DNA of 64,000 nt. It comes from Rhabditophanes sp. KR3021 (taxonomy: Eukaryota > Nematoda > Chromadorea > Rhabditida > Alloionematidae). The position numbers and the translations under genes were made by a program. The notes under the pieces are model-generated. The model made no database searches. It saw only the letters and a list, made by a program, of their open reading frames with translations, and was not told the DNA's origin. The stretch spans positions 558,001-622,000 of the forward strand of contig CAUJLY010000001.1 in the NCBI GenBank assembly GCA_963281155.1, written 5' to 3'. Shown here one piece after another: positions 49,036 to 57,944 of the stretch; position 1 is the stretch's first letter; every line of letters starts with the position of its first letter.

Positions 49036-50495
49036 TTACAAATTATTTGCTTTTAATTTCTCTGAAAATTTCTCAGCACTTTTTTTGATAGCTTTCTTTT
49101 TTTCTTCAGACAAATGATAATTAACATAAACAGTACCATCAATATGTCCACCATCAAATTGAGGTTTTTCATTTGAAGAACAATCATTGAAAATGTTGTT
49201 CATTTTGTCATAGAACAAAACTGAACGTACGGGATCTGTATCCAATTTCTTTCCCTTATGCATTTGCCTGATATTAACAAAGAAATCTTCAGGAACAACT
49301 TGGGATTCAGGATCACAATTATCAAGAATCTCCTTCTCTATTTGATCACTTTTGTAATCTTTTAACTTTTCACCATCAAAATCATAAATTATTCTTGGAA
49401 ATTTACGTTCATCAAGCTGATTTAGCATCTCTCTGCATGGTTCTAATTCTTTGCTTGTCGACATACTGATATTTGTCATTACAACTTCATCAGTAACTTT
49501 TGAATACAATTCTATGTCTTTGTGGATTTCACTTAACTTATAAGAATGCCCATCTTTTGAGACATATTTAATATGCTCATCAGCCTTCTTCCATATATCT
49601 ATTAGTACTTTTTCATAACAAACACATGTTTTATGGACATAAAGTTTACTGTGTAAAATCATTCTAGCGCGAAAGACATTTTCAATGTTACTCTTAACTT
49701 TTATAGCGTATGCTAGTCGGTGATATTTAAATTCTGGACACATTACAACTTTGCAATTAGTAATAATTCGATGTAAAGAATCCTTAAATTAGTATTATTA
49801 AATAAACTTTAAATTAAGTAAGTACTTACTATGCCAAATGGAGAGTCCTTAATACCAGCCATTTGTGGATCTCTTAGTAAATAATCGAATTTATCAACAT
49901 CTAAACCAGAATGTATATTTGAAACAAATTCATAAAGAAATGATTTTTCAATTGGTCTTCCTTTCAACATCCAATTATTATCTTCATCCACAAATAATTT
50001 TGGGGGGGAGATACATTCTTTAATAAATGTATAATCATCTTTTGTAAATTTTAAATCAAATTCTACCTTAATATCAGGATATTGTTCAAAAATCAAATCA
50101 ATCATATCCTTGGTAGCTTCTTCATGCTCAAACGTAGTCTTTGAATCCACTTGTTTGACAAAAACTTCATAAGTATGACTAAATGGCCCATGTCCGATAT
50201 CATGAAGTAATGCAGCAATAGATACACATAAAACATCTACCTCAGTAATATTTGATTCAGGTTGATTTTCTTTGATATGATTTAAAAATACAACTGATAT
50301 GTGGTATGCTCCTATCATGTGAATTTTTCTAGTATGTTCTGCGCCAGGATAAATATGCTTATTAGTGCTTAGAGCAGCAAGCTTGTTTGCTCTTTGAAAA
50401 TATTTAGTATCCATTAATAGACGAGCAAAATGGGAAACCTCAATAAAGCCATGGACAGGATCGCAAATAAAATATTTTTTTGTTGGTTCAGACAT
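49036..50495 (-). CDS. SAMHD1-like dNTP triphosphohydrolase (HD domain), copy 1
   Basis: Two exons, 49830-50495 and 49036-49782, phase 0, 47-nt intron, give 470 residues. The HD-domain metal and active-site residues are present: His54 (GAEHTRKIH), His98-Asp99 in LLHDIGHGPFSHTYE, His124 (FEHEEATKDM) and Asp199 in SGLDVDKFDYLLRD. The second exon carries the C-terminal lobe (HRLAYAIKVKSNIENVF ... LIDIWKKADEHI) as in SAMHD1. There is no SAM domain. The allosteric-site motif DTPQFQRLR of human SAMHD1 reads DTKYFQRAN here, so the Arg that contacts the regulatory GTP appears changed. The expected reaction is dNTP to deoxynucleoside plus triphosphate. Its start codon abuts the Helitron: the first base of the ATG is the element's terminal base. 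Confidence 0.92.
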
Positions 50496-50802
50496 CTATT
50501 ATAAATAGCAAACTGCCACTTTTTTTATTTTTCCATAGAACTGACCAAATCTCGATGTTAGATACGTTTTGGAAAGGTCTCAGAATTCTTAAAGACCGTT
50601 TTTTTTTGTTTTTGATTTGGACGATTTTTTAGAGATCTGTGGGTGGATAAGAGAGGTCAAAAAAAAAAATTGTCGTACAACAAAGTTATGATAGTCATTG
50701 GAAAGAGCATGAAAAACTAAGTATATTTGCAAAGAAAACATTTTGATTTTATCGAGGCATGGAGGAGCAAAGAGCAGATAGATTAAAGAAAGAAAGAAAA
50801 TT

Positions 50803-51168
50803 TTTGTCCCCACCCTTATCTTTTAAAATATCTATTATAGCGTCTAAATCTTTACTGCATCGGAAAGAGCTATAAAAACGGTAATGGCCGAAATTTTTCT
50901 CAGCCCACTTTGATCAGATCCATGAGTAGCTATGGACCAATATATACCTATGAGTGTCCAAGAATATTTTTTTTGAAAAAAGAAGTTTGTCCCCACCCTT
51001 TTCTTTTAAAATATCTATTATAGCGTCTAAATCTTTACTGCATCGGAAAGAGCTATAAAAACGGTAATGGCCGAAATTTTTCTCAGCCCATTTTAATCAG
51101 ATTCATAAGCAGCTATGAACCGGTATATATCCATAAGTGTCCAAAAGTATTTTTTTAAACAAATAAGA
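50803..51168. repeat. 183-bp direct tandem repeat, two copies, inside the Helitron 5' region
   Basis: Copy 1 begins TTTGTCCCCACCC at 50803 and copy 2 begins identically at 50986. Shared blocks include ATCTATTATAGCGTCTAAAT, TTTACTGCATCGGAAAGAGC and ACGGTAATGGCCGAAATTTT. Differences are few and cluster at the 3' part of the unit. It lies between the 5' terminus and the transposase start, where a Helitron would carry its promoter or Rep-binding sites. Confidence 0.85.
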
Positions 51169-54800: not shown

Positions 54801-57311
54801 TGTTTAAAGAAGTTTCCTTTTGCCTTTCAAGAAACAACATCAATTACAACGTCTGGCAAAGTATCTTACAAAAGGAGTCAAAATGTTGATAATAATGCAT
54901 TTGATAGTAAAGGAAATGTTATCACAAATGAATCGGTCGTACCATACAGTCCTTTTTTATTGAGGAAGTATAACTGTCACTTGAATGTTGTAGCTGTTGG
55001 ATCTGTATCATCTGTCAAATATGTTTTCAAATACGCTCATAAAGGAGCTCCTAAAATTCAAATAGAGGTTGCTGGTGGTACGAAAGGAAATAAGGATGAA
55101 GTAAATGAGTTTTTGGAAGCAAGATATTTAGGAGCATCGGAGGCTATTTGGAGGATCATGGAATATCAAATGTTGTACAAAGATGTCACTGTCTATCGTT
55201 TACCAGTCCATTTACCTACTCAATCATTTGCTGTAGCTGATATCGAATCCAACTTTACTGAATGGAGTAAACAAGGAAGGCAAAATGTAAAATCCCAATT
55301 GGATGCATTTTATGAATTGTGTTCTGTTGATGAAGAAGCTCGGTCATTAACATATTCTGAATGTCCAAGATTCTACAGCTTTGATAAGAAACAAAGAAAC
55401 TGGAAGAAACGTGTACTTGGAAGAAAAGTTATTGGCAGGATATTTATGGTTTCAGCTTTTGAAGTTGAGAAATTTTCACTAAGGCAACTCTTGCTTCATG
55501 TAGCTGGACCACAATCAGCCAAATATTTAAGAACAGTCAATAACGTTGTTTACAAAACATTCTTTGAAGCTGCATGTGAATTAGGACTGGTAAACAAAGA
55601 AGAAAACTTCAGAGAAATTCTGAAAGAGGTAGCTGAAACATCTTTTCCCAGAGCAATCAGAAACTTCTTTGCACTACTTATTTGTTTCTATCCAGATTTT
55701 GAAGAACATAAGGAGTTGTTTGAAGAATATGTTGACAAGTTGAGTGAGGATTATCAATTAAAGTATAATAACAGAGACAAATCCATTCAGCAAGCCTTAT
55801 ATGATATTAGATCAGCTTTGGATGACAACAATTTTCGCGGGCCAACTAATTTAGATCAAGTAAATATTGAATTAGTGGACTTAAATTTCGTTGAAAATCC
55901 TGAACAATTGCTAAAAGTTGGTGAAGAGATGTATAATAAAGCTAATCCAAAACAAAAGGAATTTATTGACAAAGTTGTTGCCTCAGTAAAGAAAAAATTA
56001 AATCAACGGACTTATTTTCTACAAGGACCTGCTGGCTGTGGAAAAACATTTGTGTACATGACTTTGTATTATTTGCTTCGTGGTGAAGGTAAAATTGTAA
56101 TTAATGCTGCAAGTACTGGAATTGCCGCAAATTTACTGATATCAGGCCAGACATGTCATTCTATGTTTGCCATTCCTTTTGACATTCTGGATGACAACGT
56201 CTCATTGTCACGCATCAACCAAGAAAAGATGAAAAAGCTACTTGAGGCTGATGTAGTAATTATTGATGAAGCACCGATGCTTAATAAATGGATACTTGGA
56301 TACATTGATAGAAGATTAAAAGAAATTTGTGAAAACAATTTACCATTTGGAGGAAAAGTTGTCATTTTGGGAGGCGATTTTCGTCAAACTTTGCCCATAA
56401 TTAATAATGCCACAAGATGTGAAAATGTTAGAGCAACAATCAAATGTTCAAACATGTGGAGAGCTCATTTTGAACTATTCAAGCTAGATCAAAACATGCG
56501 TGTAAATCAAGATGAAGAAGAGTTTGCAAAATGGGTCCTAAATGTTGGGGATGGTAATGAAAAATACATTACGAATAACAAGATTAGTATTCCGCAAATA
56601 ATTAGAAGTTCCGGTGACTTGATTAAAGAAGTTTTTGAAGGTCAAGATCAAGATTCAACGGACAAATGGACTTCTGTTATTCTGGCATCAACAAACAAAA
56701 CTGTGGATACAATCAACGAAACTGTTTTGGACAAAGTCATTCCTGGAGAAGTTGTGCATTTGCTGTCTGCCGATCTTTTATTGTCAAACCCTTCTGTTGC
56801 TGAGGATATTCAAAATCTTCCTATTGAATATTTGAATAGCTTAGCTCCAAGTGGAATGCCAGTTCATGATTTAAGACTCAAATTAAACTGCATTGTGATG
56901 GTTCTTAGAAATTTGAACATCAAGAATGGAATTTGCAACGGAACACGCCTTATTGTCAAAGGAATCAATTCAAAGTTCATAACATGTGAACATATTCTCA
57001 ATCCACGCATTGGTGAAACTGTTTTCATTCCAAGAATTATTCTGATGTCTCCGGAGAAAGAATTTCCTTTCACCTTTTCAAGAAAACAATTTCCAGTAAG
57101 ATTGGCGTATGCAATGACGATCAACAAATCACAAGGACAAACTTTATCACGCGTTGGACTTGATTTGACAAGAAATTGCTTTTCTCATGGACAGCTTTAT
57201 GTCGGTTTATCAAGAATCAAATCACCCAAAAATCTATTTGTTTCTACACCTAATGAAAAAGAAATTCAAACCAATATTACGGATAACATTGTTTATAAAG
57301 AAGTTCTTTAA
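51803..57311 (+). CDS. Helitron transposase: OTU cysteine protease + HUH Rep + Pif1-type helicase
   Basis: Three exons, 51803-52231, 52282-52918 and 52969-57311, with 50-nt introns and agreeing phases, give 1802 residues without a stop. The N-terminus is basic, then acidic. The OTU protease domain has DGNCMFNAIS (Asp186-Cys189) and its catalytic His in LNHFDLI (His319). The Helitron-like N domain is followed by the Rep nuclease: MTCNPNWPEI, the two-His metal motif GLPHVHIL (His900, His902) and the two-Tyr motif KYVFKYAHKG (Tyr1040, Tyr1044). The SF1B helicase has GPAGCGKT (from residue 1375), IIDEAPML, GGDFRQTLP and TINKSQGQTL. No AP endonuclease follows. All catalytic residues are present, so the protein looks active: it should nick, unwind and transfer one strand by rolling circle. 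The start is the ATG at 51803; a TTG upstream is not needed. Confidence 0.93.
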
Positions 57312-57917
57312 TTATAATTTAATTATATTTTATTTATATATTATTTCCACCGGTTGAATTATTAGATGATTTAAATAAAGTTAAAAAATAATATGTGTTA
57401 ATTTGGAATTTTTCTAGACTTTTATAATAAATTAGGGAACCTACATACCTATAGTAGCATCAGATTTTTATATTAAAGTAACATTAATATAGTTTTGTTT
57501 CATCCCAGAATGAATATACGAAAATTTGTATATTCTTTATTTAGAATCTGAATATTACTTAGGTATATTTTGCTCGAATTATTGTATTTATAATATGTGG
57601 TCTTTTATTATTATGTCACTTATCTAGAATCCAATCACGATTCTCATTTTTATCACTTCACCTATTTTAATTATTTACTTCCCTTTAATTTGGCTTTTTT
57701 ATCTCTAAAATCATAAGTAATCTTTTTATTATTATTATTGGCAATGGGTGGTCATGGCTTATTACAGATAAAACAAACTATGAATATAGTCCAAAAAAAT
57801 AATTTTTAATAAAGGTATCAAAGCTTTTATATTGGCTAAATATGAAATAATATCTCTTATCTATATGAAAAAGTTTAAAAGAGAGATTACACAAGTAAAA
57901 ACAATGTATTAGGCGTA

Positions 57918-57944
57918 ACGCTGCGAAGCAGCGTATTCGACTAG
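57918..57944 (+). other. Helitron 3' terminal hairpin and CTAG end
   Basis: ACGCTGC (57918-57924), loop GAA, GCAGCGT (57928-57934), spacer ATTCGA, then CTAG. In Helitrons this hairpin is the stop signal for rolling-circle transfer. The next base, T (57945), is host DNA. Confidence 0.9.

What the first reader, a model, noticed from the sequence alone, without database searches (positions are those of the whole stretch)
50495..57944. A full-length, apparently active OTU-Helitron whose ends are fixed by a paralogous empty site
Seen: 5' TCTATTATA, 3' hairpin plus CTAG, and an unbroken 1802-residue OTU-Rep-helicase protein. The flanks GACA and TCTTAGACAATAT, joined, equal the sequence at 60428-60442 in the second SAMHD1-like gene. 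Having both the filled and the empty site 10 kb apart is rare and removes doubt about the borders. Known: Helitrons insert between A and T without duplication. Intact ORFs with all catalytic residues are uncommon, so this may be a recently active element.
Basis: partly seen in the sequence, partly recalled or inferred. Interest (0 to 1): 0.9.

Follow-up and report, generated by a model that had tools for sequence, protein, structure and literature searches.

The report
Intact OTU-Helitron in a parthenogenetic nematode
This is a complete, probably young rolling-circle jumping gene of an all-female roundworm that landed exactly inside the start codon of one of two duplicated genes without breaking it; it belongs to a known kind of transposon but carries an unusual extra enzyme domain.

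Summary
Window 50495-57944 is a canonical Helitron: 5' TC, 3' hairpin plus CTAG, no target duplication, one spliced 1802-residue OTU-Rep-helicase frame. The joined flanks align without a gap to the second SAMHD1-like gene, but element and 3' flank both begin TCT, leaving three bases open. Other copies settle this: 13 of 13 three-prime ends read are followed by T, and outer flanks are unrelated. The genome is Rhabditophanes diutinus KR3021, a parthenogen. It is the only full-length Rep-helicase found. Short derivatives share its ends but differ from it by 6.6% or more (nine compared), so its own family shows no very recent burst; yet the unbroken frame implies an insertion younger than about 1.1-1.3% neutral divergence. 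The clearest sign of recent activity is a related family: two OTU-Helitron derivatives 1.5% apart, with perfect ends and different flanks. Unusual: the OTU domain in a canonical Helitron, and an insertion that restores the ATG it hit. New member of a known kind; present activity untested.

The parts
50495..57944 (+). complete Helitron, 7450 bp, TC...CTAG
50495..50930 (+). 5' terminal region shared with the short deletion derivatives (element 1-436)
50792..51157 (+). 183-bp direct tandem repeat, two units, 90% alike; each unit holds TCTATTATA (50831, 51014). The short copies carry one unit
51803..52231 (+). exon 1 of OTU-Rep-helicase gene
   Evidence: splice sites read from sequence; protein P0001 is continuous across both junctions
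52282..52918 (+). exon 2, OTU domain (residues 185-283 by Pfam; Cys in GDGNC, His in NHF)
52969..57311 (+). exon 3, Rep (HUH, two Tyr) and PIF1-type helicase
53890..54018 (+). in-frame stretch (129 nt, GT..AG, 43 aa with a YPLLFP motif) that the UniProt model skips as an intron; read here as coding
   Evidence: limits read from the sequence
57795..57944 (+). 3' terminal region shared with the short copies (element 7301-7450)
57918..57934 (+). 3' hairpin, 7-bp stem, GAA loop, 10 nt before the end
50493..50495 (-). start codon of SAMHD1-like copy 1, split by the insertion between 50494 (A) and 50495 (T); the element's own first T restores ATG
49036..50495 (-). SAMHD1-like gene copy 1, open, 470 aa (filled site)
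58934..60429 (-). SAMHD1-like gene copy 2, open, 482 aa (empty site between 60428 and 60429)

Best explanation
A putatively autonomous canonical Helitron (Helitron1 type) with an OTU cysteine-protease domain fused in frame before the Rep-helicase. Shown: complete ends, intact spliced frame (splicing predicted from sequence), insertion without target duplication, empty paralogous site, and short deletion derivatives that share both ends and sit at unrelated sites. Inferred from the Helitron mechanism: Rep nicks at 5' TC with its tyrosines, the helicase peels off a single strand to the hairpin/CTAG end, and this strand (or a circle) is joined between A and T of a new site; the same protein, or a close relative of it, moved the short copies in trans. 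The OTU domain is inferred to be a deubiquitinase that protects the transposase or repair factors. The element entered the CA|T of the reversed start codon of a SAMHD1-like tandem copy, after the gene duplication and, judging by its unbroken frame, recently; its first T rebuilds the ATG, so the coding frame survived.
For: Empty site. T after 13 of 13 three-prime ends, outer flanks random-like. Domains and motifs. Nine short copies with both ends: seven of 562-609 bp, one of 302 bp and one of 540 bp (lengths from the end positions). Constraint between families: longest Rep-helicase segment dN 0.204 with dS 2.06, near saturation (786 codons); OTU segment dN 0.357, dS 1.33 (176 codons); dN below dS in 7 of 7 segments. 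Intact frame: at 2.3% neutral divergence the chance of no stop is 0.0016-0.0043, at 1% 0.06-0.09. Related family with two independent TC...CTAG insertions, 65 mismatches in aligned blocks of 2892 and 1526 columns.
Against: No sister copy closer than 6.6% among nine short copies and only one full-length copy, so transposition of this very copy in recent time is not shown. The base before the 5' end is A in 9 of 14 ends only (3 T, 2 G); a fifteenth end at C4:4498546, not in that count, is also preceded by T. Two of 13 three-prime ends are not CTAG (GTAG, CTCG). OTU structure prediction failed (mean pLDDT 33), so the OTU call rests on Pfam, motifs and weak PDB profile hits (best E 0.011). The tree of short copies is weakly resolved (1 of 8 inner branches starred, 4 open). 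No expression data were available.
Confidence: 0.88

Rival explanations
1. A young but now silent copy: inserted recently, frame intact, yet no longer transposing. This is a rival to present activity only, not to the identity of the element.
For: Only one full-length copy and no close daughters; the nine short copies compared are at least 5.6% apart from each other.
Against: Frame, hairpin, both ends and the motifs looked for are intact; a related family moved at 1.5% divergence, so a suitable transposase existed recently.
Confidence: 0.5
2. A domesticated host gene that happens to sit in Helitron ends: single-copy, intact, under constraint.
For: Single intact copy among partial relatives; constraint between families.
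Against: Both transposon ends incl. a perfect hairpin stem are kept; constraint is measured between families, so it reflects the transposon lineage and not only this locus; the insertion lies in one copy of a tandem gene pair and the other copy is empty.
Confidence: 0.08
3. The 'empty' site is a site from which a Helitron excised precisely, rather than a never-filled paralogue.
For: The same sequence would result.
Against: The two gene copies differ by dS 0.39 and align on both sides of the junction, as expected of an ordinary paralogue; Helitrons are known mainly to copy themselves (general knowledge, recalled).
Confidence: 0.04
4. A Helentron or Helitron2 rather than a canonical Helitron, since OTU domains are reported from Helentrons.
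For: OTU reported with Helentrons (PMC4067079, PMC9741609, passages read).
Against: No AP endonuclease by Pfam; A|T target of this copy and CTAG end; none of the 14 relatives scanned (of 120 listed, 279 found) showed an endonuclease domain.
Confidence: 0.05

Closest known systems
Canonical Helitron (Helitron1), e.g. Helraiser/Helibat of bats (PMC4778049, abstract start and passages read)
   Same: TC...CTAG, hairpin near the 3' end, one Rep-helicase protein, non-autonomous derivatives
   Different: OTU domain in frame at the N-terminal side; two introns; only one full-length copy here
Helentrons with OTU or tegument-like protease domains (PMC4067079, PMC9741609, passages read)
   Same: a ubiquitin-protease-like domain carried by a rolling-circle transposon
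   Different: no AP endonuclease and no TT target; here the protease is part of the Rep-helicase chain of a canonical element
Animal Helitrons with OTU domains; PMC2836005 (passages read) cites Helitron-1_SP of sea urchin for this (that element itself not seen)
   Same: OTU in a Helitron protein
   Different: not compared by sequence here
Proto-Helentron-Pi of Phytophthora (PMC4067079 section 11 read)
   Same: CTAG end, A|T insertion, border confirmed by a paralogous empty site
   Different: 5' TT; SET and hypothetical ORFs; that section's text on its proteins does not name an OTU

Membership tests
canonical Helitron (Helitron1) | 5' TC and 3' CTRR | tested here: met
canonical Helitron (Helitron1) | 16 to 20 nt palindrome about 11 nt from the 3' end (as stated in PMC4067079) | tested here: met
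   17-nt hairpin, 10 nt from the end
canonical Helitron (Helitron1) | insertion between A and T, no target duplication | tested here: met
   this copy by empty site; family: T after 13 of 13 ends, A before 9 of 14
canonical Helitron (Helitron1) | one protein with HUH Rep, two Tyr and PIF1-type helicase | tested here: met
canonical Helitron (Helitron1) | N-terminal zinc finger | not tested
   a Cys-rich stretch is visible in exon 3, no dedicated test
canonical Helitron (Helitron1) | transposition activity | not testable with these tools
   needs circles or new insertions
Helentron | C-terminal AP endonuclease | tested here: not met
Helentron | insertion in TT | tested here: not met
   this copy A|T; among 14 five-prime ends 3 have T before
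OTU cysteine protease | Pfam PF02338 above its cut-off | tested here: met
   27.1 bits against 23.3
OTU cysteine protease | catalytic Cys (DGNC) and His conserved (motifs recalled) | tested here: met
   GDGNC in 4 of 4 rows; His in 4 of 4 (for the three relatives, for this protein)
OTU cysteine protease | OTU fold | tested here: inconclusive
   prediction failed, pLDDT 33

The most novel reading that the evidence does not exclude
A currently transposition-competent canonical Helitron, with an OTU deubiquitinase built into its transposase, is moving in an obligately parthenogenetic, easily cultured nematode. The OTU would be a working part of the rolling-circle machinery, kept with its catalytic motif in three families of this genome, and the element mobilises its short copies, some of which moved without the 3' hairpin.
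Probability: 0.35. Interest if true: 0.65.

Novelty: new member of a known kind. Interest (0 to 1): 0.42.

Why it matters
Naturally intact Helitrons are seldom in hand (my general knowledge): Helraiser was reconstructed from bat sequences (PMC4778049 abstract), though an active family in wheat is now reported (PMC13286980 abstract). An intact element with short dependants in a plate-cultured clonal worm would let rolling-circle transposition, the role of the 3' hairpin and the role of an OTU domain be tested in a natural animal setting, and bears on how transposons persist without sex.

Tried and rejected
Target-site duplication of TCT (the alternative reading of the empty-site pair): rejected, since the other 3' ends are followed by T and then by varied bases. 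Homology beyond the borders: not found. Segmental duplication as the source of the two hairpin-less copies on C6: homology between their fetched loci is one block that matches the element. OTU fold by prediction: failed, mean pLDDT 33, not searched further. PDB profile search with four OTU sequences: 7 weak hits at E up to 1, best E 0.011, two of the 7 named OTU-domain proteins. Protein search with residues 130-370: only the same protein at E up to 1 among 317 candidates; that search needs shared 5-residue words, so it does not show that relatives are absent. OTU in relatives: hmmscan at E up to 0.1 found none in the 14 scanned of 120 listed; a DGNC-type motif is in 3 of 120, namely the same protein and two others without a Pfam OTU match. 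First splice of SAMHD1 copy 2 was out of frame and was redone. Distances to C3:3438k and C6:2872k are inflated, because their 3' parts are not homologous; C4:4498k and C6:773k were not in that table. Six weak 5' matches and six other-family 3' ends were not examined. Papers: PMC4067079 passages and section 11; PMC9741609, PMC4778049, PMC10676810, PMC7738172, PMC11258339, PMC5148889, PMC2836005 passages only; PMC13286980 abstract and outline only; all others listings only. The searches Rhabditophanes+Helitron (3 papers, listing only) and Helitron+OTU domain (3 papers, passages of all three read) did not show a description of this element; only open-licence papers are held.
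Full report
Where it is. The window is contig C1:558001-622000 of a 44.8 Mb, six-contig genome. The protein search returned a Rhabditophanes sp. KR3021 entry (A0AC35THX5) that is identical to the window's frame at all 1723 of its residues. The six contig lengths seen agree with Table 1 of PMC10676810 for Rhabditophanes diutinus KR3021 v.2 (passages). PMC11258339 calls this species a strict parthenogen and describes a failed first polar-body extrusion (passages).

The element. 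50495-57944 begins TCTATTATA and ends in a 7-bp-stem hairpin (stem end at 57934) followed by ATTCGACTAG. Three exons give an unbroken 1802-residue protein with OTU, Rep and PIF1-type helicase domains; no AP endonuclease was found. HUH, YVFKY, Walker A and B align with those of the nine relatives put beside it. The UniProt model starts at Met37 and omits 43 residues as an in-frame intron; all nine other relatives in that alignment have residues there, with a recognisable YPLLFP-like motif, so I read the stretch as exon.

The borders. The joined flanks align to the second SAMHD1-like gene through the junction without a gap. Because the element and its 3' flank both start TCT, that alone leaves up to three bases open. 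The genome resolves it. A 200-bp 5' query gave 20 matches, 14 of them strong, and a 200-bp 3' query gave 13. I read 14 five-prime and 13 three-prime ends (12 of the 13 three-prime ends come, the one at C6:773k): 11 of 14 begin TC, 11 of 13 end CTAG, 13 of 13 are followed by T, 9 of 14 are preceded by A. Left out of these counts: a 5' end at C4:4498546 with two changes, preceded by T; two copies (C3:3438k, C6:2872k) that have lost about the last 105 bases; six weak 5' matches. Sixty-base flanks outside the ends match this element's flanks no better than random sequence.

The target. The + strand CAT at 50493-50495 is the reversed start codon of the first SAMHD1-like gene. The insertion lies between the A and the T, and the first base of the Helitron is T, so the ATG is restored; the bases upstream of it are now the reversed Helitron end (…TTTATAATAG|ATG) instead of …TTGTCTAAG|ATG. 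Both genes are open (470 and 482 residues), with dN 0.129 and dS 0.389 between them. The first exon of copy 1 matches SAMHD1 structures in the PDB. Whether copy 1 is still expressed, or uses the Helitron end as promoter or trans-splice site, is not known.

The family. This is the only full-length Rep-helicase found. The other matches are partial: the longest are 69% and 68% identical over 786 and 680 residues, and shorter ones reach 77%. Short derivatives consist of element 1-436 joined to 7301-7450, with roughly 40 bases at the joint that this copy lacks (the 40 by eye). Seven such copies with both ends measure 562-609 bp; one of 302 bp and one of 540 bp also have both ends (positions). Nine short copies were compared: they differ from this element by 6.6% or more and from each other by 5.6% or more. 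So they descend from a related source and do not testify to a recent burst from this copy.

Age. Under neutral decay, the chance of keeping the frame free of stops falls to about 5% at 1.1-1.3% divergence (worked out from the nonsense fractions), and to 0.0016-0.0043 at 2.3%, which is the length of this element's end branch in the tree (a weakly resolved tree, 1 of 8 inner branches starred). This counts substitutions only; indels would tighten it. The bound assumes no selection since insertion. Independent support for recent activity in this genome: two derivatives of a second OTU-Helitron family at C1:7282932-7287902 and C1:7296431-7300841, both A|TCTATTATAAATAA...GTATTCGGCTAG|T with different flanks, 65 mismatches in blocks of 2892 and 1526 columns. 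Neither shows a match to residues 394-1015, which include the HUH motif, so they were moved in trans (inference).

The OTU domain. It is present in this element, in the second family (two copies) and in a third, truncated relative at C6:124k, with the Cys motif and the His in all four. dN is below dS in all seven segments compared, although dS is near saturation; one second-family copy has two stops just after its OTU part. Among the 14 relatives scanned (of 120 listed) none has a Pfam OTU match. OTU domains have been reported in Helentrons (PMC4067079, PMC9741609) and in some animal Helitrons (PMC2836005). The fold prediction failed. PMC9741609 states that transposon OTU domains had not been tested for catalytic activity.

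Verdict. A real, complete, canonical Helitron with an OTU fusion: a new member of a known kind.

Noticed in passing
C6:552071-552633 (L061) and C6:568889-569451 (L062), also C3:6152914 (L068): Three 3' ends lack the hairpin: two share the same 18-nt loss between GCGTA repeats, are sisters in the tree (96/96) yet sit in unrelated flanks, which suggests transposition without the hairpin, or two slips at the same repeat; the third shows a different 27-nt loss. PMC4778049 (passages) found the hairpin not absolutely required in Helraiser.
   Followed up: partly
window 53890-54018: The UniProt gene model A0AC35THX5 treats a conserved in-frame coding stretch as an intron and starts 36 residues late.
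   Followed up: yes
C1:7282932-7287902 and C1:7296431-7300841: Second OTU-Helitron family: two independent insertions 1.5% apart, both lacking the part with the HUH motif.
   Followed up: yes
window 50792-51157: 183-bp tandem repeat in the 5' region; each unit carries the terminal word TCTATTATA preceded by A, while the short copies have one unit. Could be a relic of an earlier 5' end.
   Followed up: partly
C1:116.6-116.8k (L057): A 5'-shortened copy appears flanked by a 14-base direct repeat (TTAAATAATTGTTT), unlike Helitron insertion; read by eye.
   Followed up: no
C2, C4 and C6, six places: A further set of 3' ends with a hairpin of another stem (GCGAAGCC or GCGAATCC), ending in CTAG or CTTG, probably another related family.
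   Followed up: no
window 62349-63411: Neighbouring frames match nematode chemoreceptor families Srv and Srg, possibly one gene with an intron.
   Followed up: no
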